From NCBI GenBank assembly GCA_943349825.1, contig CALQZQ010000002.1, forward strand, positions 186,001 through 250,000: a stretch of 64,000 bases of DNA, given 5' to 3'. Below are positions 11,086 through 25,571 of this stretch, piece by piece (position 1 is the stretch's first letter; the number at the start of each line of letters is the position of its first letter). This DNA comes from Candidatus Peribacteria bacterium. Lineage in GTDB: Bacteria > Patescibacteriota > Gracilibacteria > UBA1369 > 2-02-FULL-48-14. Under the pieces are notes generated by a model. It was not told the origin of the DNA. It worked only from the letters and a program-made list of their open reading frames with translations, and did no database searches. Both the position numbers and the translations under genes were made by a program.

Positions 11086-11766
11086 CTACTGAAGGGTCTT
11101 CAAACTGTCAAACACTTTTTTCATGCTCTCGTGATAGCCCTGCGCATACTCGAAGCCGTACAGATTGGCGCCCACACGAATCAACAGGTGCACCGTCTTC
11201 ACTTTAGCCTTATGGTTGAAGTAGAAAGACGAGTCTCCATAATTGTTGGCTTCATTCACGGTTCCCATATCTGTGAGAGTCTTAGCCTCATCTCTTAGAT
11301 TCAAATAACCCTGAAAACCGCCGGTGTCGGTGCCGTACTTGATTTCATAAATACTGCCCACAAAAGCAGCGCCACTGAACAGGTTCCATTGGTAAACCGT
11401 GGCCGCACTTTGATCCGTAAAGCCTAAAAATTCAAAGACCAAGCCAGAAAAGCCAGCTTCCTTCAACGTGGGATTCTCAAAACCTGCCGTTCTAAAAAGG
11501 TCTACGCTTAGAGAAGAGGGAGTGTCCTCAGCAGTTTCCTGAAGTTCGACAGGTTGATCCGGGCTCGTAGGAGTATCAGTAGTGGTGTCGGTTACGGGCA
11601 AGGTCAGAGGCTCGCTAGTATCTGTAATGGGCGTAGGCATGACTTCAGTGGTGTCCACTGTGTCCACCGCCGTGTCTAGATTCAAATAATTATTAAAAAG
11701 CACGTCCGTGATGGTGAGCACCACGACGAGCGACAGAATAATCGAGAAAACCGTGAATTTCTGCAT
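11086..11766 (-). CDS. Membrane-anchored protein inserted between nusG and rplK
   Basis: The 226-aa product has an N-terminal hydrophobic helix (about residues 4-22, no clear lipobox), a Thr/Pro/Asp-rich linker (about 30-85) typical of a cell-wall spacer, and a globular C-terminal domain with [34 protein letters not shown] and an aromatic end. I do not recognise the family. It should be tethered outside the membrane. Spacing of 27 bases to nusG and 23 to rplK puts it in the translation operon, which is unexpected for an exported protein. Confidence 0.75.
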
Positions 11767-11793: not shown

Positions 11794-12342
11794 CTATTTT
11801 TTCTTCACCTGGTCAAAATCCAATTCTACCGGTGTTTCACGTCCAAAGATGGAGATCATCACTTTCACCTTACCCTTTTCTTCATCGATTTCGTTCACCA
11901 CACCTTCGTAGCCGGCGAAAGGTCCATCCAAAACGATGACCAAATCGCTGACAGCGAGTGTAATTTTGAACTTGGGAGCGTTGTCGTCTTCGAGGTAGCG
12001 AGAAATCACACCAAATTCTTCTGCAGAAACCGGCACAGGGATCGTTCCGGAACCCACGAATCCGGTCACGTTGGGCGTATTACGCACCACGTACCAAGAT
12101 TCATCATCCACCATCATGTCCACCAGCACGTAACCAGGGAAAAGACGTTTCTTCTCTGTTTTTGGCTTCCCTTTCTTCACCACGATTTGCGTTTCTTTAG
12201 GCACAATCACATCAAAAATCTTGTCCTGCATGTTCATGGACTCGATACGTTGCAAAAGCGCTTCACGTACTGCATCTTCGTAACCCGAGTAAGTGTGGAT
12301 CACATACCAGTGACGACCGGTGTTTTTCGCCTGTTTTGCCAT
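11794..12342 (-). CDS. nusG: Transcription termination/antitermination factor NusG
   Basis: The 182-aa NusG has the NGN domain (HWYVIHTYSGYEDAVREAL at about residues 11-29, then KRLFPGYVLV), which binds the RNA polymerase clamp, and a C-terminal KOW domain (VSDLVIVLDGPFAGYEGVV, about 126-144) that contacts ribosomal S10 or Rho. Length and order are normal for the family. It starts three bases after the secE stop, so the two are coupled. Confidence 0.96.
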   Translation of the reverse strand: MAKQAKNTGRHWYVIHTYSGYEDAVREALLQRIESMNMQDKIFDVIVPKETQIVVKKGKPKTEKKRLFPGYVLVDMMVDDESWYVVRNTPNVTGFVGSGTIPVPVSAEEFGVISRYLEDDNAPKFKITLAVSDLVIVLDGPFAGYEGVVNEIDEEKGKVKVMISIFGRETPVELDFDQVKKK

Positions 12343-12345
12343 GAA

Positions 12346-12660
12346 TTATTGTTGTGAGGAGGAATCGGAAGAGTCAGCAGGGACGGTTTCCACGGTAATC
12401 CCATCGGGAGCCACGACACCGGGGCTACTTTCGCCGGAAGTGTCAGTGACGGTGTTATCTGGGGTTGCCTTGAGCAAAGCCTGGTAAGCTTGACTGAATC
12501 CCAAATCGAGCAAACCAAGATAGACGCCGACCACCAGAGAAACTCCGATGACGATACCGGTGAGCAGAGCGGCTTGTTCTTTTGTGGGCCAGGTCACTTT
12601 ACCAAATTCTTCGAACGCGCTTTTGAAGTAAGCGACAACGGGGTTTTGAGAGGATTTCAT
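12346..12660 (-). CDS. secE: Preprotein translocase subunit SecE with an acidic tail
   Basis: The N-terminal 60 residues are a typical single-helix SecE: an amphipathic FKSAFEEFGKVTWPTKEQ motif followed by one membrane helix (about residues 30-52). SecE clamps SecY in the protein-export channel. Most bacterial SecE proteins of this type end after the helix; here about 45 extra residues rich in Ser, Thr, Asp and Val follow it and should lie outside the membrane. The -10-like TATAAA (complement of 12666-12671) lies five bases before the ATG, predicting a leaderless operon transcript. Confidence 0.92.
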   Translation of the reverse strand: MKSSQNPVVAYFKSAFEEFGKVTWPTKEQAALLTGIVIGVSLVVGVYLGLLDLGFSQAYQALLKATPDNTVTDTSGESSPGVVAPDGITVETVPADSSDSSSQQ

Positions 12661-12893
12661 GAGTATTTATAATTGCGTACTATGGCGAAAAAGCCTTGGG
12701 GCTTCAGTGCAAAGGGAATATACAACAGACAGAGGGGAGAATGCAAGAGAAAGTGCTCAGAGCCCAGGCGCGCCAATAGGTGAGCGCATCCTCACCACAA
12801 TTGTGCAAAACGAGCCAGTCAAAGTGATCATTTTGTCAGGACTTTTGGGGTCGATTTTTGCTACAATTTCCCTGTCTTTTAAACCTGTTAAAT

Positions 12894-13688
12894 ATGACTG
12901 ACCAAGAACTTTACGAAAAAGCCAAGCTCTACGGACAAAACGCCCTGCTCTGGCGCCAAAAATTCACAGGACTCTTGCCCGAGGTGAATCGCCGCCGTCT
13001 CCATGAGCGCCACGGCTTTGGAAGTATTTTTGAGTTTGCGTACAAACTAGCGGGCCTTTCAGAGCAGCAGGTTAAAAATGCGCTAAACTTGGAAGCGTCA
13101 TTTACGAACAAACCTACTCTTAAGGCTCTTTTGGAGAACGGGCAGGTGAGCATCAATAAGTTGGTTCGGGTGCAGTCCGTGGCTACTCAAGAAAATGAAA
13201 GTTTCTGGGCGAACCAAGCCCAAGTCCTTTCCAAAAAAGCTTTGGAAACTTTGGTGAGGGATGAAAGGATAGTGAGCCAGCCAAAGGTCCTGCCCGGGCA
13301 GGACCTACAATTCTCAGCATCTGTCCAGAGCCGCCTCCACGAACTGCAGGCCAAGGGAATAGACCTCGACCAACTACTCACGGAATTCCTGGACCAGCGA
13401 GAGGGAAAAATTGCTCAGGAAAAAGAGGCAATCGCTGAAAACCTGCCCGTAGCCACCTCTCGCCAGGTTCCGGCTCGTACCAGGAGGGTCGTCCGCGCAG
13501 AAAACGGCACAAAATGCTCCATCCCAACCTGCCAACGCTCGGCCACCGAAATCCACCATACGCAAACCTTCGCACTCAGTCGCCGGCACGATCCTCACTA
13601 CTTGGCCCCACTCTGCAAAGCTCACCACCAAATTGCGCACGCCATCAATCTGAAGGTGCTGGAAAAACGGCGGGAGGCAGTGGGGTGA
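12894..13688 (+). CDS. HNH endonuclease of the DUF222/13E12-like type
   Basis: The 264-aa protein has the two-part form of this family. The helical N-terminal region (about residues 25-135) contains RHGFGSIFEFAYKLAGLSE and KALLENGQVSINKLVRV. The C-terminal HNH motif runs from CSIPTCQRSATEIHH to LAPLCKAHHQIAH, with Cys pairs and the catalytic His-His. Such proteins are probable DNA nucleases of unknown target, often multicopy. I chose the ATG at 12894. Codons for VLPGQD at about residues 132-137 lie on a 22-bp perfect palindrome, related to non-coding copies elsewhere (see repeats). A -10-like TACAAT lies at 12862-12867 without a good -35. The gap 12661-12893 holds the secE promoter and nothing else I can support. 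Confidence 0.85.
   Translation: MTDQELYEKAKLYGQNALLWRQKFTGLLPEVNRRRLHERHGFGSIFEFAYKLAGLSEQQVKNALNLEASFTNKPTLKALLENGQVSINKLVRVQSVATQENESFWANQAQVLSKKALETLVRDERIVSQPKVLPGQDLQFSASVQSRLHELQAKGIDLDQLLTEFLDQREGKIAQEKEAIAENLPVATSRQVPARTRRVVRAENGTKCSIPTCQRSATEIHHTQTFALSRRHDPHYLAPLCKAHHQIAHAINLKVLEKRREAVG
13285..13306. repeat. Palindromic element copy inside the HNH gene
   Basis: Bases 13285-13306 form a perfect 22-bp palindrome whose centre is TGCCCGGGCA. The left half plus centre, AGGTCCTGCCCGGGCA, is shared with elements at 32688 and 34021, and the flanking bases TACAATTCTCAGCATCTG resemble theirs. In the HNH reading frame it gives VLPGQDLQFSAS, close to VLPGQDFTSSAS read from the 32.7-kb copy, so the insert keeps the frame open. 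Confidence 0.7.
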
Positions 13689-13765: not shown

Positions 13766-14689
13766 ATGGCACTACGAAAAACAAAAATCAACGCTCTTGG
13801 AGTCCTGATGGCTGTAGCCGCAGGAATAGCGACTTTTGCCCTGGTACACCCGGCTTTTGCCGCGAGTTATATGCCGCTTCCGTCCACCGAAGATTTGAAC
13901 GTGCCGGCCCCGGAAGGCGACACCGCCATTGAAAAACTGGAAAACTTCCTCGGGCCCATTGCTCGCAACCTCCGCATCATCATTGGGGCCATTGCCGTGC
14001 TGCTCATCGTGGTTTCCGGATTCACCATGGTGATCGGGGGCGACAACGAGGAGACCTACAAAAATCAACGTAAATCTGTTTTGTACGGAGTCGTCGGTCT
14101 CATCATGATCAGTCTGGCAGGTCCAATTGCAGAAATCTTCGACTACCGCGAAGGAAACTTCCTGGACGATCCGGACGCTTTTGTGGAACGCGCAGCCCTC
14201 TTCAACGACACAACTCAACTGATCGTGACTTTCTTGAAATATTTCTTGGGCAGCTTAGCCACACTCATGTTCATCCGTTCTGGAGCCCTCATGGTGGCGG
14301 AAGGATCGAACGAAGAAGTGGTGACTCGAGAAAAAAAGAACCTGGCCCTGGGCGCCGCCGGCTTGTTCATGATCTTCGTTTCCGACCTGGTGATTAGAAA
14401 CATTTTCTACAGCGCCACCTACAACACCGACACCAGTTCCACAGTGGTTTCCATCAATCAAAACGAATTCGTAGTGCAGTTGGTGGCCTTTACCAACCTG
14501 GTAGTGAGCTTCGTCGGTCCCATCATGATGTTCGGAATCGCGGCGGGAGGACTGCTCTATGTGGCCTCCTTCGGAAATGAAGAACGCACCGCTCTGGCCA
14601 AAAAAATCATCTTCAATTCCATCATTGGGGTAGTCATCATTTATGGCGCTTTTGCCCTGGTGACCACTGTTATTGCCGGCACTTTCTAA
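13766..14689 (+). CDS. Polytopic membrane protein with three VirB2/TrbC-like two-helix modules
   Basis: This 307-aa protein has a signal peptide (about residues 1-33, ending in AFAAS) and then three tandem copies of one module: a membrane helix, a short loop with Gly and an Asn/Asp-Glu-Glu motif (GGDNEE at 91-96, EGSNEE at 179-184, FGNEER at 269-274), one or two Lys/Arg-Lys pairs, and a second helix containing G-hydrophobic-S/G. Each module resembles the hairpin of VirB2/TrbC pilins of type IV secretion. I chose the ATG at 13766, just after a TATAAT, instead of an upstream in-frame start without signal features. It is the first gene of the operon. No secretion ATPase lies nearby, so a pilus role is only an inference. 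Confidence 0.8.
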   Translation: MALRKTKINALGVLMAVAAGIATFALVHPAFAASYMPLPSTEDLNVPAPEGDTAIEKLENFLGPIARNLRIIIGAIAVLLIVVSGFTMVIGGDNEETYKNQRKSVLYGVVGLIMISLAGPIAEIFDYREGNFLDDPDAFVERAALFNDTTQLIVTFLKYFLGSLATLMFIRSGALMVAEGSNEEVVTREKKNLALGAAGLFMIFVSDLVIRNIFYSATYNTDTSSTVVSINQNEFVVQLVAFTNLVVSFVGPIMMFGIAAGGLLYVASFGNEERTALAKKIIFNSIIGVVIIYGAFALVTTVIAGTF

Positions 14690-14694
14690 CACGC

Positions 14695-15636
14695 ATGAAA
14701 AAACTCTTCTTCACACTCGCGCTGCTCGCTCAACTCTTCCACTTTCCGGTGGCCGATGCCAGCAGCTTTGATTTCGGCACCACTCTGGAGACCTTCCAGG
14801 AAAGCGTGACGGAACAAAGTGTGGAGGTAGACCCCACCGGAACCGGAGTGACTTTGCCCACCTTCACCGACGACACCGAAGAAGGGGCAGGAGTGATTGT
14901 GGCGGCCATTCAACGTTTCTTGGACTTCTTTAAGCTCATAGTGACTCCGGTGGCGATTCTATTCATCACCATCATGGGGGTGAAAATGGTCACCGCCGCA
15001 CGCGACAGCGAAGAGGTCACCACAGCCGCAAAAAATTCAGTCACCTACACTCTCTACGGGCTACTCTTTATCTTCGTCTCCGATTCTGTGGTGAGCGTAT
15101 TTTTTGGATCTGAAGGGGAAATTTTCCGCAACGGAACGAGCGGCGTGCAAGATTTTTCCACAAAATCCTCCAACTTCTTCGCCGGGATTTATGGTCTGGT
15201 GGAAACGCTCATCGGAGCCATCGCAGTTTTCATTCTCGTGACCGCGGGTATGCGCTACGTGGCCGGTTCCTACGACGACGACCAAATCTCCAAAGCCAAA
15301 AAACAGATCCAGTGGGCCCTCGTGGGCCTTTTCGTAATCGGAGTTTCGGAGTTTGTAGTGAAGGACGTACTTTTCCAGGATCAAGGCACTCGTCTGGGAG
15401 TGGAGGAGGGCAAGCAATTGCTGGCGAATCTCACCAACTTCATGGCGGGAACCATGGGAACTATCGCCTTTGTTTCGCTGCTCTATGCGGGTTATCTCTA
15501 TGTCACTGGTGCTCAAAACGAAGACAATGTCGCCAAAGCCAAGAAGATCATCATGTGGTCTTTGGGCGGTATCGTCATCGCTTTAGCAGCCTTCGCTATC
15601 ACCAATACTATAGTAACCCTTGATAGCTCACGCTAA
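14695..15636 (+). CDS. Second triple-module VirB2/TrbC-like membrane protein
   Basis: The 313-aa protein has a signal peptide (about residues 1-23) and then again three helix-loop-helix modules with loops ARDSEEVTTAAKN, GSYDDDQISKAKK and GAQNEDNVAKAKK. It is a paralogue of the preceding gene with a short extracytoplasmic segment before the first module. It starts five bases after the upstream stop, so the two are probably co-translated. The modules keep the Glu/Asp pair and the Lys pair although overall identity looks modest, which suggests that the loop has a function such as subunit packing. Confidence 0.8.
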   Translation: MKKLFFTLALLAQLFHFPVADASSFDFGTTLETFQESVTEQSVEVDPTGTGVTLPTFTDDTEEGAGVIVAAIQRFLDFFKLIVTPVAILFITIMGVKMVTAARDSEEVTTAAKNSVTYTLYGLLFIFVSDSVVSVFFGSEGEIFRNGTSGVQDFSTKSSNFFAGIYGLVETLIGAIAVFILVTAGMRYVAGSYDDDQISKAKKQIQWALVGLFVIGVSEFVVKDVLFQDQGTRLGVEEGKQLLANLTNFMAGTMGTIAFVSLLYAGYLYVTGAQNEDNVAKAKKIIMWSLGGIVIALAAFAITNTIVTLDSSR

Positions 15637-15667
15637 ATCCCTCTATACTATGCACAAGTTTCACGCC

Positions 15668-18600
15668 ATGAATCTACGCCGCCTCATCCTCAGCCTCTCC
15701 GCGCTTATAGTGTTGGGGCTCATGACTCTTAGCCCAATCGCTTCCGCCTTGGACGTGACTTTTGATTTGAGCACGACGGACTCTGATTCTACAAGTGGCG
15801 ATGTAAGCGATACCGACTGTGCCAATCTGGATGAAAGCATGGCTGCCATTTCCGGTTGTGACACCAGCAGCCAGGTCACTGACTTCACCGAATACGGTGG
15901 AGTTTTGGAAGGCCCCGACGCTTCCGGCTACGATTCCACGCTCACCGAAAATACCAACGCCCGCGACTTCATTCAGTCCATCGTCAATTTTGCTCTGTCT
16001 TTCTTAGGACTCATTGCCATTGTGATGGTGATCTACGGCGGTGTCCTCTATGTCACCAGCCGTGGCGATGAAGAAATGACTTCTAAAGGAAAGAAAGCCA
16101 TCACTTACGCCGCGATCGGTATTGTGATCATCATGGGTTCTTACGCCTTTGTGAACACGATCCTAGATGCAGGCGGAGGGGGAGACGGAGGCCTGGGCAA
16201 CGGCACCGCCACCAATGGCACCACCATCACCGAAGCCGGAGCCGCCTTCGACGTAGAAGGCACCTTGAACGAAATCGAAAGCATCGCCGCCGACTATAAA
16301 GACGCCTACGACACTTACGTGGAGAATACTCAGGAAATCAATGCACTGTTAGCCGTTGAAATGCCTCTCATCGTGGAAGTAGAAACTACAGACAGCACCG
16401 TTTCTGGCTTACTCGACTGGTGGGGAGAATCGCTGTCCGGGACCGATAGTGATTATGCGGATCAGTATACCTTGCTCAGCGAATCACAAATCGACGACTA
16501 TCTTTCCAAACTGAAAACAGGCATCCAAAACATTGAAGGCAATAGTGACCCTTATAGTGAGACCTTCGAACACGCCCAAATCCTTTACGATTATCTGAGA
16601 AGTGGGACGACAAGTGGTGTAGTGAAATGGTTCGCGAGTCTCATACCAGTAGCCGAGGCTAGTTTAAGTCTTACGGAAATAATGGACTTGTATGCCAGTG
16701 GTGATCTCACCACCGATTCTTGTGCCTTCAAGGAGGCAGTGGCCAGCGATACTGGTTCATACACGGAAATAGGGCTTGGAGTAACGGTGAGCAACACTTC
16801 TGTGAGTGAAATCGACGACAACATTTGTCCGCTTCTTCAGAACATCCAAACCGCAGCCGACACTGATTATACGGAAGCCGTCGCCGAACTCAAAACCCGC
16901 ATGACTGATCTGGGAGCACTGTTTGATTCCCAAGAAGAGGGTTTCAGCGGCGGGTCCAGTCTCTCCAACATCGCGAATGCTACGGGTTCTACCGATGGTA
17001 CGGGTACTTATGACCTCGCGCTCAAAGATCTGACGACAGCCGAAACAATAATCACCTCCAGCACGGTGCGAAACATCATCAGCAGCATGAATGATTTCCA
17101 CTCCTCCGTGGAAACTCTGGAATTCGTGAAAGTGAGCCTCTCTGCTAGCACGGTGGAAGGCAATGCTCCTATCATCGTGCGCTTCAATGCCCTCGGCACC
17201 GAAGACCCCAGCGGGGACACGGTACAGGAAGACAGTATCCAATGGGATCTCGATGGAGATACGGGCTTAACTCCTTTTACGACCAACAACATCACGAATG
17301 AACTGGAACCCACCGGCAGCGCCGTGAGCATGACTTATAACGACGCCGGTACTTACCGAGTTCGCGTTCGTGTCCTCAGCTCAGATCCCAACGTGGCCGC
17401 CGGTATTTCTACCGTCACCGTGATTGTGAATCCGCCTCGCTCCAAAATCGTTTTGACGGGAACGGTAGGCACAGATTCCTCCACCATTGCTGATTTTAGA
17501 GAGCCACCCTACATCAATGCCAGCAGTTATAAAGTGACCATGGCGGAAGCCACGGCAGGAATTGCTTTCGACGCTTCCCAGAGTACCGATGGGGACGGGA
17601 ATACGGACGGAATCAGTCTCTTTGCCTGGGATTTCGGAGACACCTACACGTGTTCCGGAAGTGGCAGTGAAGAATGTGGATCCAAAGCCACTCACGCCTA
17701 TGGCGAAGCCGGTGCCTACACCGTTTCACTTTCCGTCACCGATTCCACCGGAGTCGAAGACCGTAAATACTTCACCCTTTATGTAGCGTCGCCCGCGGCG
17801 CGCATTTCCTACTCACCAACGGTAGGACCTGTAGGCTCCACCTTCAGTTTCGACAGCAGTTCCTCTTCGGTAGATTTGGGACAAATCGTCAGCCGCCAGT
17901 GGTCCGCTAAGCTCAACGGAACGGCGGTGACCTTGGACGAACCGACCGGAACCACGATGAACCAAATCTTCAATACTCCCGGAATCTACACCATCACTCT
18001 CACCGTGGGGGACAACAGCGGAGGGAACGACACCGCCAGCGCCGACATTCTTGTGGAATCCACGGCTCCAGTAGCGACCTTCACTTACACCATTGAAAAA
18101 AGCAACGAACCCGCCACGGTGATCTTCGACGCCACCGACAGTTACGATCCCGACGAAGGCGACAGCATCACTTATGAATGGGATTTTGACGGCACGGAAG
18201 GAACCGACTACAAGACCATCAAGAGTTCTACAACGGGTGATCTAGTCACCCTGCAATACTTAAAGAAAGGCGATTACGAGGTGGCCCTCACGGTCAATGA
18301 CAGCCAGACCGGTGACCTCCGCAAGAGCGACACCGCCAGCACTACCGTTCCCATCGATTCCGTGCTCGATGTGAACCTCACCATAGAAGGCGAAGACGCC
18401 AAGCACTTGGGCGAAGACGGAACCGTGGACGTGGAATTCACTGCCGAAAGCCAAAATGCCACTTCCTTTGAAGTGGACTACGGCGACGGCAATACCGATT
18501 TCACCGACAGCATTTCCAACAATCAATCCATCTTCACTCACACCTACGAAGGAGCTGGAATTTTCTATGTGACTTTGACCGCCTTGGACGACGACGGCAA

Positions 18601-20599
18601 TCAAAATGACATCACGCAGCGCGTTTACATCGGCGCGGGTGATTCTCCCGTGGCAGTGCTCGATGTCACTTCAGAAGGCGTAGACATCGGTTCCGGAGCC
18701 ACGCTGAACGGAAACGTAAACACGGTCTTCACCTTTGATGCCGGAGCTTCCATCAATCTGGATGGCAGCAGCGACGGTTTGAATTACAGCTGGAACTTTG
18801 GAGACGGCACCGTCGCCACGCAAGAAAGCGTGACCCACAGCTTCCGCGAACACGCCACCTACACCGTAGTTCTCACGGTGAAGGATCAGGACGACGCCAC
18901 CCTCACGTCCGAGGCCACGGTCAACATCGAAATCAAGAGCATGCCACCGGAAATCCACAGCATCACCACTCAAGTAGACGGCGAGAGCCTCACCACACCG
19001 CTCAAGGTCAACGTGACCGTAGACGTGAGCGATGAGGATTCCAAGGTCAGCAATTATAAAGGGTGGTACTACGATTTGAACGACACCGCTACAGAGCTCG
19101 GCACAGTCGTTTCTCAAAGCAACAGCTTCACTCTCAGCATCAATACGAAGGGGGAAGAAGGGGAGGAAAAACAATACGGTTTTGCCGTGGAAGTTTACAG
19201 CGGCACCGACACCGTTTCGAGCTTCGATGAACTCGATCCTGCGGAAATTCCCACCATCACCGTGACCAACGGTCCCAACGACAATCCCGTCTCCGCATTC
19301 ACCGTGGATAAAACCTCGGTTTACGTGGGCGAAGACCTGCATTTCTCCAGCACTTCTTACGATCCCGACGGTAGCATCAGCAAATACTGGTGGGACATAG
19401 AAGGGGACGGCTTCTACAACAATGATTACGAAGAAACCGGTTCTTACACCTACCAATTCACTCAAATCCATCCCGACGGTATTCCCGTGAAACTGCAAGT
19501 GGAAGACGACGCCGGAGCCACGAACGAATCAGAAACCATCACCATTTATGTGACGGCGATTTCTGACGCTCCCGATGCAGCCTTCCTCGCCAATGTGTCT
19601 GGCACTGCCGTGAGCTTTGAAGACAACTCCATTGTGGATACCGACAACGGCGCGAGCCTCGTGGGCATTTACTGGGATTTTGACACCAACGTGGATAGCA
19701 ATGGAAACGGGGTGCCCGACGACGACATCGATTCCACCGAAGCAAACGACACCCACGATTACACGGCCTTTGGCACCTATTCTGCAAAAATGACCGTGGT
19801 GGACAACACCGGCCAAGTCGACACAGTGATTCAAGACATCACGGTGCAAGATGCCGCCGACCCCACAGCCGCCTTCACCTACACGGTGGAAGAGAAAACA
19901 GTCAGCTTCCAAAACACATCCACGGTAGACACCGCGCACGGCGTAGATGTGCGTTCCTACACATGGGACCTCGATTTAAGCGCCGATGCCGATGGCGACA
20001 CCGATCCTGAAAACGATGCCGAAGCCACGGTAAAAAATCCTACCAAGGATTATGCCGATTACGGTTCTTATGACGTCATCATGACCATCGAAGACACCTA
20101 CGGAAAAACAGCTACGGTCACGCAAACCATTGTGGTGCCAGATCCCATCCAGCCCGTGGAAGCTTTGCTCACCAGCGTGCCTCAAGGCAACAGCCTCGAT
20201 CAAATTCTGCTGACCACAGACGGCTCCAACGTCACTTTCTATTTCAATGGAACGGGTGGCAGTGAAGGCTACACCTTCACCATCGATAAAAATATTTTCT
20301 ACGACACGGATGGCGACGGTCTGCGCGACAACGATGTGGATTATTCGTCCACCAAAGCCGGCTCATGGAAGACTCCGTTCTACAAATCCTACGGACAAAT
20401 AGTGAGCAAGCTCACCGTCACAGACAACGAATCCGGCGAAAAAGATATCGCCACTCTTCAAGTCGTCTTTGAAGGATCCCTGGGAGGTGCTAATCTCTTA
20501 AGTGCTACGCCTTCACAAATGTTACTCTTACTCGGAAGCGCTCTTCTCACGGCCATTCTTGGCGTGAGCATGGTCTTCCGCCATAAACCAATAAACTAG
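15668..20599 (+). CDS. Giant PKD-repeat surface protein with an N-terminal VirB2-like module
   Basis: The 1643-aa protein has a signal peptide (about residues 1-28), one VirB2-like module (loop SRGDEEMTSKGKK near 135-147), a Gly-rich hinge, a roughly 300-residue helical region, then about nine or ten Ig-like PKD domains recognised by Y/W-x-WDFGDG variants. Asp-rich loops such as DSNGNGVPDDD and DTDGDGLRDND look Ca-binding. A last hydrophobic helix followed by RHKPIN anchors the C-terminus. The ATG at 15668 has the acgccATG context of neighbours and begins the signal peptide; an ATG at 15650 is also possible. It should span the cell surface as a long adhesin or stalk. Confidence 0.82.
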   Translation: MNLRRLILSLSALIVLGLMTLSPIASALDVTFDLSTTDSDSTSGDVSDTDCANLDESMAAISGCDTSSQVTDFTEYGGVLEGPDASGYDSTLTENTNARDFIQSIVNFALSFLGLIAIVMVIYGGVLYVTSRGDEEMTSKGKKAITYAAIGIVIIMGSYAFVNTILDAGGGGDGGLGNGTATNGTTITEAGAAFDVEGTLNEIESIAADYKDAYDTYVENTQEINALLAVEMPLIVEVETTDSTVSGLLDWWGESLSGTDSDYADQYTLLSESQIDDYLSKLKTGIQNIEGNSDPYSETFEHAQILYDYLRSGTTSGVVKWFASLIPVAEASLSLTEIMDLYASGDLTTDSCAFKEAVASDTGSYTEIGLGVTVSNTSVSEIDDNICPLLQNIQTAADTDYTEAVAELKTRMTDLGALFDSQEEGFSGGSSLSNIANATGSTDGTGTYDLALKDLTTAETIITSSTVRNIISSMNDFHSSVETLEFVKVSLSASTVEGNAPIIVRFNALGTEDPSGDTVQEDSIQWDLDGDTGLTPFTTNNITNELEPTGSAVSMTYNDAGTYRVRVRVLSSDPNVAAGISTVTVIVNPPRSKIVLTGTVGTDSSTIADFREPPYINASSYKVTMAEATAGIAFDASQSTDGDGNTDGISLFAWDFGDTYTCSGSGSEECGSKATHAYGEAGAYTVSLSVTDSTGVEDRKYFTLYVASPAARISYSPTVGPVGSTFSFDSSSSSVDLGQIVSRQWSAKLNGTAVTLDEPTGTTMNQIFNTPGIYTITLTVGDNSGGNDTASADILVESTAPVATFTYTIEKSNEPATVIFDATDSYDPDEGDSITYEWDFDGTEGTDYKTIKSSTTGDLVTLQYLKKGDYEVALTVNDSQTGDLRKSDTASTTVPIDSVLDVNLTIEGEDAKHLGEDGTVDVEFTAESQNATSFEVDYGDGNTDFTDSISNNQSIFTHTYEGAGIFYVTLTALDDDGNQNDITQRVYIGAGDSPVAVLDVTSEGVDIGSGATLNGNVNTVFTFDAGASINLDGSSDGLNYSWNFGDGTVATQESVTHSFREHATYTVVLTVKDQDDATLTSEATVNIEIKSMPPEIHSITTQVDGESLTTPLKVNVTVDVSDEDSKVSNYKGWYYDLNDTATELGTVVSQSNSFTLSINTKGEEGEEKQYGFAVEVYSGTDTVSSFDELDPAEIPTITVTNGPNDNPVSAFTVDKTSVYVGEDLHFSSTSYDPDGSISKYWWDIEGDGFYNNDYEETGSYTYQFTQIHPDGIPVKLQVEDDAGATNESETITIYVTAISDAPDAAFLANVSGTAVSFEDNSIVDTDNGASLVGIYWDFDTNVDSNGNGVPDDDIDSTEANDTHDYTAFGTYSAKMTVVDNTGQVDTVIQDITVQDAADPTAAFTYTVEEKTVSFQNTSTVDTAHGVDVRSYTWDLDLSADADGDTDPENDAEATVKNPTKDYADYGSYDVIMTIEDTYGKTATVTQTIVVPDPIQPVEALLTSVPQGNSLDQILLTTDGSNVTFYFNGTGGSEGYTFTIDKNIFYDTDGDGLRDNDVDYSSTKAGSWKTPFYKSYGQIVSKLTVTDNESGEKDIATLQVVFEGSLGGANLLSATPSQMLLLLGSALLTAILGVSMVFRHKPIN

Positions 20600-20600
20600 T

Positions 20601-22769
20601 ATGGATACGCCAATCCCTCCTTCGGCTCAGCCGAATCCTACGCCCACCCCAACACCTTCCGTGACTCCACCGGTTGCGCCACCAGCGCCCTCCGTGGTTC
20701 CAGCCACTCCCGTGCCCGCCGCTCCGCTGACTCCGGAAGAAAAAGCAGCGAAGAAAAAAGCCATGTGGAAACGTCTCGGCGTCGTCACTGCTATTTTTTA
20801 CGTCGTGGTTTTGCTCGGCATTTTTGCCTGGGCTTTACTCGTGGGACAAAGCGCGGTTAGCCTTTTTGATTATTTATTTTTCAGCCAAGCCGAGTGGGGA
20901 AGTTTCCTTTTGAAACTCTTCAACATCATGGTGGGGGCTCTGGTGGCCATCACCTTTTTCATGGCTGTCTTTGGCTTCATCAAATCTCTGCTGACTAAAA
21001 AAGAAGAAGCAGACAAAAAGAAAGCCGCTTCCAGATTGGCCCTCATGGCGGGCATCGGATTCTTTGTACTCACGGTGGGCTGGCTCGGAGGCATTTATGT
21101 CTTAGGCCCCAAACTCGTGACCGAAATCGATTACGGTTCACCCATCAAAACCGACCCAGAAAACCCTCTCAACCTCACCACTCCGGTGGAAGTGGGCTTC
21201 GATGCCACTGGCATTCCCGTGGATGAAAAAATCTACACCATCCAGTCCTACACTTGGGATTTTGGAGACGGAAACAGCAGCAACGGTCAAACCACTTCCC
21301 ACGTCTACACGCACAAGGCGGAAGGCGATGGAGTCTACACCGTCACTCTCACGGTGAAGTACATGGATTTGAAGAGCGGAGAAACCTTCAACGACACCTA
21401 TAAGACTCAAGTAGGAATCGCCAACGAACAAACGGCAGCAGCCTTCACCGCGACTCCGGACAGTGGAGAAACTCCGCTCGACGTGCATTTTGACGCCACT
21501 GGGTCTTACGATCCAGACGGTGAAATCGTGGCCTACGAATGGGACATGAACAACGATGGCAAATTCGATGACGCCGAAGGCGAAGAAGCCGATTACACCT
21601 TCACTCAGGAAGGAGATTACACCGTCACCCTGCGCGTCACCGACAACAGCGGCGCCTACAACACCACTTCCAAAATCATCAAGGCAGGAAGTGTGGGCGG
21701 ACTCCGCGCAGTCATTTCTTCCAGCGCCGGAGAAAATGGCACCTACACCGTAGGAGATGAGTACGAATTCACCGGCTCTCTTTCCGAAGTAGATACAGGC
21801 AAAATCACCAAATACACTTGGAATTACGGCGACGGGAGCAAGTCCGCCGAAAGCAAAACCGTTAAACACACTTTTGATGAAGCAGGCAGCTACACCGTGA
21901 GCCTCTCCGTGCAAGACGCCGACGGCAACACCGATGAATCAATGTTGGAAGTGAACGTTACTGAAGAAGGAAAAGCTCCAGTCGCGGAAGTCACCACCAC
22001 TCCCGCCATGGTGAATGGAGGCGTTACGGGCCCCATTCCTCTGCTCGTAAATTTTGACGCTTCCGACAGCACCGACGAAGACGACGACATCGTTCAATAC
22101 GATTGGGACTTTGACAACGACGGCAGCACCGACGACACCGGCAGCACGACCTCTTACACCTTTCAAGAACTCGGAACTCACACTGCGGTACTCACCGTCA
22201 CGGATTCTGTAGGAAACAAGGATGAACTCAGCATTCCCGTCACCGTCACGGAACAAGGCATTGTAGCCAATCTCGAAGTGGATGAAACCAACGGAGAAGT
22301 GCCCCTCACCGTGCATTTCGACGCTTCCGGGTCCACTTATAAAGAAGGCTCCATCGTTTCCTACTCCTACGACTTCGGAGACGGCAGCGCTCCCTACACC
22401 ACCGGGTCCAGCGTCACTTACAAATACAACAACGTGGGCAACTACACCGCCAGCGTCACCGTGATTGGAGGCGACGGAAAAACCGCTACCGACAGCGTAC
22501 AAATTGTCGTTCGACCGGTAGCCCTTACGGCTTGTTTCACGGTAAACACAGCCACCGGCTCAGCTCCACTCTTTGTCGCCGTGGATCCTTCTTGTTCTAG
22601 CGGCACCATCTCAACCTACGCTTGGGATTTTGGAGACGGAGTCATCAGCTACGACCACAAACCTGAAGTACACACCTACGACACTCCCGGCACCTATACG
22701 CTCACACTCGAAGTCACCAGCCCCGAAGGCATCGTGAGCGACTTTGAAAATACGGTTACCGTGAAGTGA
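20601..22769 (+). CDS. PKD-repeat membrane protein with a Pro-rich cytoplasmic N-terminus
   Basis: The 722-aa protein begins one base after the previous stop. Residues 1-40 are Pro/Ala/Val-rich. Three membrane helices follow (about 53-77, 103-128 and 148-170). The last two surround a loop with KKEEADKKKAA, so they look like one more copy of the two-helix module of the upstream genes. The rest is extracytoplasmic, with about six PKD domains (YTWDFGDG, YEWDMNNDG, YTWNYGDG, YDWDFDNDG, YSYDFGDG, YAWDFGDG). It ends without a C-terminal anchor. It is the last gene of the operon. Confidence 0.82.
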   Translation: MDTPIPPSAQPNPTPTPTPSVTPPVAPPAPSVVPATPVPAAPLTPEEKAAKKKAMWKRLGVVTAIFYVVVLLGIFAWALLVGQSAVSLFDYLFFSQAEWGSFLLKLFNIMVGALVAITFFMAVFGFIKSLLTKKEEADKKKAASRLALMAGIGFFVLTVGWLGGIYVLGPKLVTEIDYGSPIKTDPENPLNLTTPVEVGFDATGIPVDEKIYTIQSYTWDFGDGNSSNGQTTSHVYTHKAEGDGVYTVTLTVKYMDLKSGETFNDTYKTQVGIANEQTAAAFTATPDSGETPLDVHFDATGSYDPDGEIVAYEWDMNNDGKFDDAEGEEADYTFTQEGDYTVTLRVTDNSGAYNTTSKIIKAGSVGGLRAVISSSAGENGTYTVGDEYEFTGSLSEVDTGKITKYTWNYGDGSKSAESKTVKHTFDEAGSYTVSLSVQDADGNTDESMLEVNVTEEGKAPVAEVTTTPAMVNGGVTGPIPLLVNFDASDSTDEDDDIVQYDWDFDNDGSTDDTGSTTSYTFQELGTHTAVLTVTDSVGNKDELSIPVTVTEQGIVANLEVDETNGEVPLTVHFDASGSTYKEGSIVSYSYDFGDGSAPYTTGSSVTYKYNNVGNYTASVTVIGGDGKTATDSVQIVVRPVALTACFTVNTATGSAPLFVAVDPSCSSGTISTYAWDFGDGVISYDHKPEVHTYDTPGTYTLTLEVTSPEGIVSDFENTVTVK

Positions 22770-23187: not shown

Positions 23188-23234
23188 CGACAGGTCATTT
23201 TGGTCATTTCCTCTGGCCATTAACCCGATTGTTT

Positions 23235-25571
23235 ATGCATAACTTAGCTCGTCTTTCTGCACGATTTGTATTTTTGGTACTTGCGATGGGCGCTTTTTTA
23301 AGTGTGGTTCCTTTGACTTTTGCGAAATACACCTTCCAAACAGAAACAGTCATAGAAGGTGGCTACGATTACTCTGTGGATAAATCGGAATGGATCTATG
23401 ATTCAACCACTCATCAAGAAGAAATCCAGTGGACTCATCCAGAAATAGAAGGAGTAGCACCTTGGGAGAACGATTTGGTGGTGGATAGCGAAGGCTTTGT
23501 CCACGGAGTGATTAGGGTCACGGGGAATGGCGCCCCTATAGGACTCCAATATGTTACTAATGAGCACGGGCGATGGGAAGTGGATACTATTTGGTCCGGC
23601 TCGCTGAGCAGCTCAGGTTACCTTGGTATTGAAATGGATTCTAAGGGAGTTCTACACGTTCTTTTTGCGAACGATGGCGAGATTATCTACTTAACAAACT
23701 ATTTCGGTTCATGGCAGCCTTGGTTGGTGGACTATGCAAGTACGGACACTATTCACGATGCAGATTTCACTTTGGATGAACAGGACAATCTACACCTCGC
23801 TTACGTGGATGCACAAAGACAAGTCAGCTACGCTTTTGTAGAAAACTTTTCAAACAGAGGTCGAATCCAAAATCTACAATTAAATCCGACGATAACCGTT
23901 ATAAAAAGCCCAAGTTATACGCTACAGAGTAACTATCAACTGACTCCAGATGATATATTCGGAGATGTAGAGGTAGCGACCAAAGATGGGGCAATTGCCG
24001 TGGCTTTTGGGGAAGATGTTTATAGCTCGGGTGTGTTTAGTGGCACGGATATTTTTTATTCCACCTCTCTACATCGATCCCAAGTATGGTCCACGCCGCT
24101 GTCCATGGGTCTGACTCCTACGGATTATGAAAAGATAGCAGAAATGGCCTATGCCGAAAACAATGATTTATACCTATGGTCACACTATAAACAATACGTG
24201 TACAAATCAGGCACGTGGACGGAAATCGCTCAGCTTTATGGAAGTTCCATAGTCTCGTACACAAATTTTGGGCTAAACCCAATAAATGACCACACGGTGA
24301 TTGGAGCAGGTTGCCAACAAGGAACTTGCTCGCTCATTCAATATACGAACCCTACGCAAGGTCAACTATTAGACGACTATTCAACAATTGATTTTATCGA
24401 TCCAAGTGGCGCTGGATTTCTATCTATGGACATCGATGCGGATGGAAGACCTCATATGCTTTATGTAGACAGTTCCGAGCCGGGGTATTTGAAATACGCC
24501 ACGGTCACAAGCTCTTATGACACGGTAGATGACATAAATCTGAATGCGCAAAACTCTCTCGTCGCAACCAGTAAAGGCGATCCTTATATTGCTTATTATG
24601 GAGAAAGTCAGAGCAGCCTAGGCGGGAACCTAATGCTAGCCAGCAAAGTCGGCAATGCTAGCTGGACCATTCGTACGCTGGATCTCATTGGAGATACAGG
24701 CTTGCACCCCGACATTGCGGTGGATGGAAATGACCAGCTTTATATAAGCTATTATTCCTCCACCGATGATGCGGGGAATGGAACTAACGACCTTATGTTT
24801 GCCAGTGATTGCAACGGACCTTGGTTGACGAGCACGGTGGATGGAGACTGGGGCGAATCGGTTGGGCTTTATAGCGCAATAGCAGTGGGCAGAAACGGGC
24901 AGATTCATATCCTTTATTACGATTCATTCAATGGAGATCTCCGCTACGCCACCAGCAACTCTTGTGGGGCTTCCTGGAGAGATGAACTGGTGGATGCTAC
25001 TCCTGGAGCCAATGTGGGAGAACAGGTCAGTATGGTTTTGGCTCAAGATGGAACCTTATATTTCTCTTACTACGATCTCACCAATGAAGATTTGAAGTAT
25101 GGATACGGTACAAGTGGTTCATGGTACACTCAGACGCTCGATTCAACAGATTCAACGGGAACTTTCAGTTCCATTGCCTTGGACGGGGACGGCAAAGTCC
25201 ACATCAGTTATTATAGCCTTACGGATTCAGCATTGGAGTACATAAGCAACGATTACACAGGCCCAGCACCTTTTTATGGACTTCATGGCTCTATAGCAAA
25301 CGGATGGGACCGCACGACGGTGGACAATGCAGGCACCGTAGGGGCGTATAGCTCCATCGATTTGAATAACAGTGGAGTGCCTTATATTAGCTATTATGAC
25401 ACCACCAACCGAGACCTATTGGTGGCGACTAAAAATGGTACGAGCTGGCAAAGTGCTCGGATGGACGATGAAGAGGCGGGTCTATGGACATCTCTTTACG
25501 TCGACGCCAATACTTGGATACACATTGCTTACGTAACCAGTAGGGGCGACTTAAGATACATTCAGCTCTAA
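23235..25571 (+). CDS. Secreted beta-propeller-like repeat protein
   Basis: The 778-aa protein has a signal peptide (about residues 1-30, ending in FAKY) and then at least ten repeats with a hydrophobic-x-ISYYD-type strand, for example LYISYYSS, IHILYYDS, LYFSYYDL, VHISYYSL and PYISYYDT, each followed by DL-x-YA and GSW motifs. This pattern of four-stranded blades suggests one or two beta-propellers, related in style to BNR/sialidase-like repeats, but no Asp-box (SxDxGxTW) is conserved and no catalytic residues are evident. It is probably a surface binding protein. I chose the ATG at 23235 over a TTG two codons earlier. The Cys-rich lipoprotein downstream is 19 bases away. Confidence 0.78.
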   Translation: MHNLARLSARFVFLVLAMGAFLSVVPLTFAKYTFQTETVIEGGYDYSVDKSEWIYDSTTHQEEIQWTHPEIEGVAPWENDLVVDSEGFVHGVIRVTGNGAPIGLQYVTNEHGRWEVDTIWSGSLSSSGYLGIEMDSKGVLHVLFANDGEIIYLTNYFGSWQPWLVDYASTDTIHDADFTLDEQDNLHLAYVDAQRQVSYAFVENFSNRGRIQNLQLNPTITVIKSPSYTLQSNYQLTPDDIFGDVEVATKDGAIAVAFGEDVYSSGVFSGTDIFYSTSLHRSQVWSTPLSMGLTPTDYEKIAEMAYAENNDLYLWSHYKQYVYKSGTWTEIAQLYGSSIVSYTNFGLNPINDHTVIGAGCQQGTCSLIQYTNPTQGQLLDDYSTIDFIDPSGAGFLSMDIDADGRPHMLYVDSSEPGYLKYATVTSSYDTVDDINLNAQNSLVATSKGDPYIAYYGESQSSLGGNLMLASKVGNASWTIRTLDLIGDTGLHPDIAVDGNDQLYISYYSSTDDAGNGTNDLMFASDCNGPWLTSTVDGDWGESVGLYSAIAVGRNGQIHILYYDSFNGDLRYATSNSCGASWRDELVDATPGANVGEQVSMVLAQDGTLYFSYYDLTNEDLKYGYGTSGSWYTQTLDSTDSTGTFSSIALDGDGKVHISYYSLTDSALEYISNDYTGPAPFYGLHGSIANGWDRTTVDNAGTVGAYSSIDLNNSGVPYISYYDTTNRDLLVATKNGTSWQSARMDDEEAGLWTSLYVDANTWIHIAYVTSRGDLRYIQL

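What the first reader, a model, noticed from the sequence alone, without database searches (positions are those of the whole stretch)
13766..22769. Operon of repeated VirB2-like two-helix modules joined to giant PKD surface proteins
Three adjacent genes carry seven copies of one module (three, three and one), and the fourth gene probably an eighth: two membrane helices around a short loop with Gly, a D/N-E-E/D pair and a Lys pair. The first two proteins are little else; the third and fourth add about 9-10 and 6 PKD domains. The genes are 5, 31 and 1 base apart. VirB2/TrbC pilins normally carry one such hairpin; triple fusions with PKD stalks and no secretion ATPase nearby suggest a different membrane-embedded assembly, perhaps the base of a surface fibre or attachment organelle.
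Basis: partly seen in the sequence, partly recalled or inferred. Interest (0 to 1): 0.78.

Follow-up and report, generated by a model that had tools for sequence, protein, structure and literature searches.

The report
Pilin-hairpin complex carrying giant surface stalks
A conserved four-gene unit of ultra-small, probably host-dependent bacteria joins up to three copies of a membrane hairpin, elsewhere used as a secretion-pilus subunit, into single proteins and anchors fixed-length surface stalks with it; it looks like an undescribed cell-surface apparatus, but its function is untested.

Summary
Three adjacent genes carry 3, 3 and 1 copies of one two-helix module. The module belongs to Pfam PF18895, T4SS_pilin (E 2e-18, 3e-26, 5e-11); g1 also passes TrbC/VirB2. 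An eighth copy in g4 is probable only (profile-profile E 3e-6). g3 and g4 add 9 and 6 PKD domains.

The four-gene order with 3-3-1-1 modules recurs across the window's order, divergent from secE-nusG-rplK-rplA. It was tested without selecting on the operon, through nusG: 12 of 14 closest loci have it, and no locus outside the lineage does. PKD number is fixed (g4: 6 in 21 of 21; g3: 9-11). Module positions keep their identity across families, so the fusions are old.

The theme is wider. Code-25 relatives keep the g3-g4 pair. In at least 31 genomes of other Patescibacteria classes a 560-1,045-aa hairpin protein lies just upstream of a 1,700-26,000-aa hairpin protein; the three giants scanned carry Ig-type domains.

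Best reading: concatenated T4SS-pilin hairpins form a membrane platform that anchors fixed-length stalks for cell contact. T4SS descent is well supported, but use by the dispersed VirB4 system is not shown. Not found described in the literature searched. Function is inferred.

The parts
13766..14689 (+). g1: signal peptide plus three T4SS_pilin-type hairpins (307 aa)
   Evidence: PF18895 3 stretches E 1.8e-18; TrbC PF04956 E 1.2e-6, above cut-off; conserved in order
13934..14146 (+). g1 module a (internal type)
14198..14407 (+). g1 module b (internal type)
14465..14677 (+). g1 module c (C-terminal, canonical pilin type)
14695..15636 (+). g2: signal peptide plus three T4SS_pilin-type hairpins (313 aa)
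   Evidence: PF18895 3 stretches E 3.3e-26; NF045849 Mbov_0395 pilin-like above cut-off, 58.5 vs 40 bits
14899..15105 (+). g2 module a
15169..15378 (+). g2 module b
15409..15615 (+). g2 module c
15668..20599 (+). g3: signal peptide, one hairpin, variable helical region, 9 PKD domains, C-terminal hydrophobic segment (1643 aa)
15947..16171 (+). g3 hairpin module, the most conserved part of g3
   Evidence: PF18895 E 5.3e-11; conservation 0.70 vs about 0.5 for PKD; AF2 hairpin pLDDT 88.5
16175..17107 (+). g3 poorly conserved, apparently helical membrane-proximal region
   Evidence: conservation 0.23-0.26
17135..20128 (+). g3 array of 9 PKD domains (17135-17404, 17519-17770, 17801-18046, 18077-18334, 18401-18622, 18692-18919, 19295-19540, 19577-19837, 19865-20128)
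20522..20578 (+). g3 C-terminal hydrophobic segment with basic tail (not in all orthologs)
20601..22769 (+). g4: proline-rich N-terminus, three TM segments, 6 PKD domains (722 aa)
20895..21083 (+). g4 probable eighth hairpin (TM2-TM3)
   Evidence: hhalign vs g2 prob 88%, E 3e-6; single-protein scores weak
21159..22754 (+). g4 array of 6 PKD domains (21159-21392, 21441-21677, 21729-21944, 22020-22235, 22269-22502, 22533-22754)
11797..12660 (-). secE-nusG, the divergent neighbours that mark the locus across the order

Best explanation
The four genes encode one membrane-anchored surface assembly descended from T4SS pilins (VirB2/T4SS_pilin hairpins). Inserted by the Sec pathway, g1 and g2 each lay three linked hairpins side by side in the membrane. 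g3 and g4 each contribute one hairpin (g4's is probable) and expose PKD arrays of fixed number. The hairpins pack into a defined hetero-oligomeric platform, with up to eight hairpins per g1:g2:g3:g4 set. From it two classes of stalk project, about 25 nm (6 PKD) and about 40-50 nm (9-11 PKD), through the wall toward a partner cell. Fusion fixes order and stoichiometry, so this should be a static scaffold and not an extending pilus. Shown: homology of the modules, order-wide conservation, fixed PKD numbers, position-specific modules. Inferred: assembly into one complex, stoichiometry, stalk lengths, topology (from hydropathy) and a role in cell contact.
For: All members share the module (g4). 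The same 3-3-1-1 gene order is on one strand in most of 20 fetched relatives from 15 other families, the rest being incomplete at contig ends or frame breaks; the unselected nusG test agrees. PKD count is constant while sequence drifts to about 30-40% identity: g4 6 in 21/21, g3 9-11 in 23/23, as expected for a structural spacer. Modules a, b and c each keep identity by position across families. The hairpin is the best conserved part of g3. In other classes an analogous pair exists: 31 of 33 listed genomes have a 557-1,045-aa hairpin protein directly upstream of a giant hairpin protein, and three giants examined carry Ig/TIG/Big_5 domains. T4SS pilins, Ig-like and PKD proteins are among highly expressed genes of Paceibacteria grown with methanogens (PMC10936435).
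Against: No structure, localisation, interaction or mutant data. AF2 of g2 gave only low confidence (pLDDT 56), so packing of the three hairpins is unknown, and no complex could be modelled. In several class families g1/g2-like genes lie apart from the g3-g4 pair, so the two halves may work separately. The g4 module is not certain.
Confidence: 0.5

Rival explanations
1. The operon is the cell-surface and membrane platform of the organism's dispersed type IV secretion system: g1/g2 replace the missing VirB6/VirB2 translocon, and VirB4, PrgI and the VirD4-like ATPase, encoded elsewhere, power it to move protein or DNA into a host cell.
For: Own genome has VirB4 (NF045971, above cut-off), PrgI, a TrsD-like gene and a VirD4-like ATPase beside another hairpin cluster. 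No TrbL/VirB6 was found, and VirB6 is reported absent in Gracilibacteria (PMC12102498). The best NCBIfam match of g2, the Mbov_0395 pilin-like protein, and that of VirB4 belong to related monoderm conjugation systems. VirB4 is present in 279 of 288 class genomes. A T4SS pilin array is essential in Saccharibacteria (PMC10633639).
Against: VirB4 is never beside the operon: where both are on one contig they are 46-276 kb apart. VirB4 is universal in family f19, which lacks g4. The genome already has a separate hairpin set next to the VirD4-like ATPase. No sequence link to VirB6.
Confidence: 0.27
2. A passive envelope structure: hairpin-anchored PKD proteins hold the S-layer or wall at fixed distance from the membrane, with no role in host contact.
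For: Fixed PKD numbers, divergence from core translation genes in every order member, moderate and even conservation along the PKD arrays.
Against: Does not explain why the anchors are multiplied pilin hairpins in two extra proteins that carry no stalk.
Confidence: 0.15
3. True polymerising pilus: the fused hairpins are pilin subunits of an extracellular fibre with PKD proteins as tip or decoration.
For: Module family is the T4SS pilin family, and the canonical-type C-terminal module is retained.
Against: A 1643-aa PKD protein or a six-helix triple fusion would have to leave the membrane to join a helical pilus; no ATPase in the locus; internal modules form a separate, diverged type.
Confidence: 0.06

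Closest known systems
Patescibacteria VirB2-like pilins (Pfam PF18895 T4SS_pilin) and their 2-11-gene arrays (PMC12102498; the essential array of S. epibionticum, PMC10633639)
   Same: Same two-helix module, same phylum; arrays of diverged copies in neighbouring genes; class family f33 still shows single-copy arrays around the PKD genes
   Different: Here copies are fused three to a protein (four detected in f22) with position-specific identity, and others carry PKD arrays; not linked to virB4
TrbC/VirB2 pilins (PF04956) of conjugation systems
   Same: g1 passes the TrbC cut-off; signal peptide plus two-helix hairpin
   Different: VirB2 is a small single-hairpin pilin extruded by a linked machine; here 307-1643-aa proteins, no linked machine
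Mbov_0395 family pilin-like conjugal transfer protein (NF045849)
   Same: g2 above the curated cut-off
   Different: A protein of about 80 aa of integrative conjugative elements; not fused, no PKD
Giant PKD/adhesion proteins of Vampirococcus (PMC8080830)
   Same: Very large membrane-associated proteins with PKD domains in related code-25 lineages; our code-25 loci carry the g3-g4 pair
   Different: Pilin hairpin and gene pairing do not appear in the passages read; no direct orthology test made here
Extended VirB6 proteins (see PMC12857230)
   Same: Polytopic T4SS-associated membrane proteins, some with large hydrophilic domains
   Different: No sequence match to VirB6/TrbL

Membership tests
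T4SS_pilin (PF18895) | Sequence match to the family profile above its cut-off | tested here: met
   g1, g2 and g3 above 26.6 bits; g4 not on its own
T4SS_pilin (PF18895) | Helical hairpin fold | tested here: met
   AF2 module: two helices 5-46 and 51-83, pLDDT 88.5; PDB comparison not discriminating
VirB2/TrbC pilin | Match to TrbC profile | tested here: met
   g1 29 bits vs cut-off 27.9; g3 22 bits is below cut-off
VirB2/TrbC pilin | Small protein with one hairpin only | tested here: not met
   Three hairpins in g1 and g2; g3 1643 aa with PKD array
VirB2/TrbC pilin | Encoded with VirB3/VirB4/VirB6 | tested here: not met
   No such gene in the fetched loci; VirB4 46 kb or more away where on one contig
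VirB2/TrbC pilin | Polymerises into an extracellular pilus | not testable with these tools
   Needs filament isolation or tomography
Complete type IV secretion system | VirB4 ATPase in the genome | tested here: met
   844-aa protein, NF045971 363 bits vs cut-off 325
Complete type IV secretion system | VirB6 channel component | tested here: inconclusive
   No TrbL PF04610 match in own genome; divergence cannot be excluded
Complete type IV secretion system | Operon physically linked to its machinery | tested here: not met
PKD-domain surface proteins | Tandem PKD domains above cut-off | tested here: met
   PKD_4 9 stretches in g3, 6 in g4
PKD-domain surface proteins | Exposed at the cell surface | not testable with these tools
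   Inferred from hydropathy topology only

The most novel reading that the evidence does not exclude
Patescibacteria build a class of surface machine not described in the literature searched here, in which T4SS-pilin hairpins no longer polymerise but form a membrane platform of fixed composition that anchors giant Ig-type stalks. It is found across several classes as a pair of one medium and one giant hairpin protein, and in the window's lineage has gained two concatenated multi-hairpin proteins that take the place of the missing VirB6-type base for contact with or delivery into host cells.
Probability: 0.3. Interest if true: 0.85.

Novelty: new variant of a known kind. Interest (0 to 1): 0.66.

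Why it matters
How Patescibacteria attach to and draw from hosts is a central open question, and a T4SS with a pilin array is essential in the one member studied genetically. This work points to a specific set of conserved, single-locus genes, with counterparts in other classes, that ties the pilin fold to giant surface proteins. The fixed geometry (hairpin numbers, PKD numbers) gives concrete predictions for tomography and complex modelling.

Tried and rejected
Solved-structure sequence search with g1 and g2 profiles: nothing. AF2 of g2 with 11 sequences: low confidence, Foldseek meaningless. AF2 of the module: confident hairpin, but PDB comparison only returns generic hairpins and coiled coils, and no T4SS pilin was among the rows shown. 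Tested whether g4 matches a profile trained without g4: weak, so the eighth module is called probable only. Considered NCBIfam 'CPR_pilus_PamR' (NF058578) because of its name: only short PKD-type stretches, 32-51 bits vs cut-off 300, so not evidence of membership. Considered a C-terminal sorting signal in g3 (hydrophobic segment plus basic tail): absent in several orthologs, not pursued. Literature searches for a described pilin-PKD or fused multi-pilin system in Patescibacteria found none in the held library; subscription papers and preprints are not covered.
Full report
What is there. Pfam finds T4SS_pilin (PF18895) three times in g1, three times in g2 and once in g3, with E 1.8e-18, 3.3e-26 and 5.3e-11. 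g1 also passes TrbC/VirB2 (E 1.2e-6). g4 reaches only E 0.0056, below the cut-off. g2 passes the NCBIfam model for the Mbov_0395 pilin-like conjugal transfer protein (58.5 bits, cut-off 40). Family profiles of g1 and g2 align end to end (E 4e-53), and g3's module aligns with g2 (E 3e-22). For g4 I trained a module profile without any g4 sequence: single g4 proteins then score about as well as shuffles that keep the hydrophobic pattern. Profile against profile, g4 aligns with the third module of g2 at probability 88%, E 3e-6, though only 42% against g3, and outside the class the g4 profile finds short ORFs over exactly the hairpin columns. The eighth copy is therefore probable. PKD domains number 9 in g3 and 6 in g4.

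Fold. With 79 module sequences AlphaFold2 gives a confident hairpin: helix 5-46, tight turn, helix 51-83, mean pLDDT 88.5. Whole g2 shows three such hairpins but low overall confidence (pLDDT 56), so their packing is not known. Comparison with solved structures does not discriminate for so simple a fold. By hydropathy g1 and g2 have a signal peptide plus hairpin helices, g3 a signal peptide, one hairpin and a C-terminal hydrophobic segment that not all orthologs share, g4 three TM segments after a proline-rich N-terminus. The conserved basic loop (GNEE...KAKK) would lie in the cytoplasm and the PKD arrays outside; this topology is inferred.

Conservation. Every one of 99 relatives searched has a g2-like gene. 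I fetched 20 operon loci from 15 other families of the order and one further class family. Most hold g1-g2-g3-g4 complete on one strand with 3-3-1-1 modules (g4 sometimes below threshold); the rest are incomplete at contig ends or frame breaks. The neighbours are constant: secE-nusG and, farther out, rplK and rplA, divergent from g1. To avoid selecting on the operon I scanned named genomes with NusG instead. Of the 14 closest loci with upstream sequence, 12 have g1 in this place; two close ones (L067, L069) and all loci outside the lineage do not. The nearest named relative is Ca. Peribacteria bacterium Ike-50m-54 (CALRCE010000022.1, NusG 96% identical). g4 orthologs were found in 65 of 73 order genomes in the class sample. 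The number of PKD domains hardly varies: 6 in 21 of 21 g4, and 9, 10 or 11 in 23 g3. That is the pattern of a spacer of fixed length, and unlike a repeat-variable adhesin. The hairpin is the best conserved part of g3 (0.70 against about 0.5 for PKD and about 0.25 for the helical region between).

History of the module. A tree of 124 modules (short, so only deep groupings are used) separates the internal modules a and b of g1 and g2 from a second group holding the C-terminal modules, the g3 module and single-copy pilins (SH-aLRT 95), and modules at the same position mostly group together across families. So the C-terminal module is the canonical pilin type, the internal ones are a diverged type, and the fusion predates the families sampled. 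In family f22 the two proteins have four detected modules; in f33 the PKD genes sit among many single-module genes, as expected if fusions arose from pilin arrays. In family f19, which has no clear g4, a pair of triple-hairpin genes stands alone. In code-25 relatives the g3-g4 pair is retained.

A wider pattern. In other classes of the phylum the same hairpin begins giant ORFs. A search of 380 genomes lists 33 with a hairpin in an ORF of 1,600 aa or more; in 31 of them a second hairpin protein of 557-1,045 aa lies directly upstream (a lower bound, since the list is cut). Three giants scanned carry Big_5, TIG or fn3 domains instead of PKD. The window's operon thus looks like one version of a paired, hairpin-anchored surface system, to which this lineage has added two concatenated hairpin proteins. 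Whether the two kinds of pair are orthologous or convergent is open.

Relation to secretion. The genome has a T4SS in pieces: a CD1110-type VirB4, PrgI, a TrsD-like gene and a VirD4-like ATPase beside a second hairpin cluster of five modules. TrbL/VirB6 is not detectable, which fits the published absence in Gracilibacteria (PMC12102498). VirB4 is nearly universal in the class (279 of 288), also where g4 is missing, and is never near the operon: six genomes have both on one contig, 46-276 kb apart. Descent from T4SS pilins is therefore well supported; use by the T4SS is possible but not shown.

Mechanism. I take the four proteins to form one static platform. Linked hairpins fix the number and order of subunits in the membrane, and g3 and g4 enter it through their own hairpins and carry stalks of two set lengths (about 4 nm per PKD domain from general knowledge, so about 25 and 40-50 nm). 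Such a platform would suit contact with another cell, in organisms whose cultivated relatives live on hosts. Supporting hints are that T4SS pilins, Ig-like and PKD proteins are among the strongly expressed genes of Paceibacteria grown with methanogens (PMC10936435), and that a T4SS pilin array is essential for epibiotic growth in Saccharibacteria (PMC10633639). The steps from conserved genes to a complex and from complex to contact are inference.

Known or new. Single VirB2-like pilins and their arrays in Patescibacteria are published (PMC12102498, PMC10633639), and giant PKD proteins are known from Vampirococcus (PMC8080830). I found no description of fused multi-hairpin pilins, of pilin hairpins joined to PKD or Ig arrays, or of the paired-gene pattern in the library searched. 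I class it as a new variant of a known kind, with a real chance that it is a distinct surface machine.

Noticed in passing
Genomes outside the class, e.g. G474:C1:97361-100205, G526:C10:51721-54226, G481:C7:20660-22810 (L182, L179, L180): Two-gene unit: hairpin protein of 560-1,045 aa directly upstream of a giant hairpin protein, with Ig-type domains in the three giants scanned; seen in at least 31 genomes.
   Followed up: partly
G630:C8:141882-142157 and G375:C1:501367-501645: The hairpin opens frames reported as 26,099 and 14,266 aa long, exceptionally large bacterial ORFs.
   Followed up: no
G000:C4:46699-49134 (L029:6654-11203): Second cluster of T4SS_pilin modules (1, 2, 1, 1) next to a VirD4/HerA-like ATPase of 683 aa: probably the genome's conventional T4SS pilin array.
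   Followed up: partly
L177, L178, L184 (family f19): A pair of triple-hairpin genes without PKD partners, near a dihydropteroate-synthase-like gene in two of three (the latter read by eye).
   Followed up: no
window 12858-13688 (+): 276-aa ORF between secE and g1 with an HNH-like C-terminal motif by eye but no Pfam match; no counterpart between nusG and g1 in the closest relatives with tight spacing (L034, L035, L036), so possibly an insertion.
   Followed up: partly
window 23229-25571 (+): 780-aa protein with N-terminal hydrophobic segment just downstream, no Pfam family, weak below-cut-off NCBIfam hit; not part of the conserved unit in relatives.
   Followed up: partly
window 11089-11766 (-): 226-aa protein with one TM segment, conserved beside nusG across the order but without Pfam match.
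   Followed up: no
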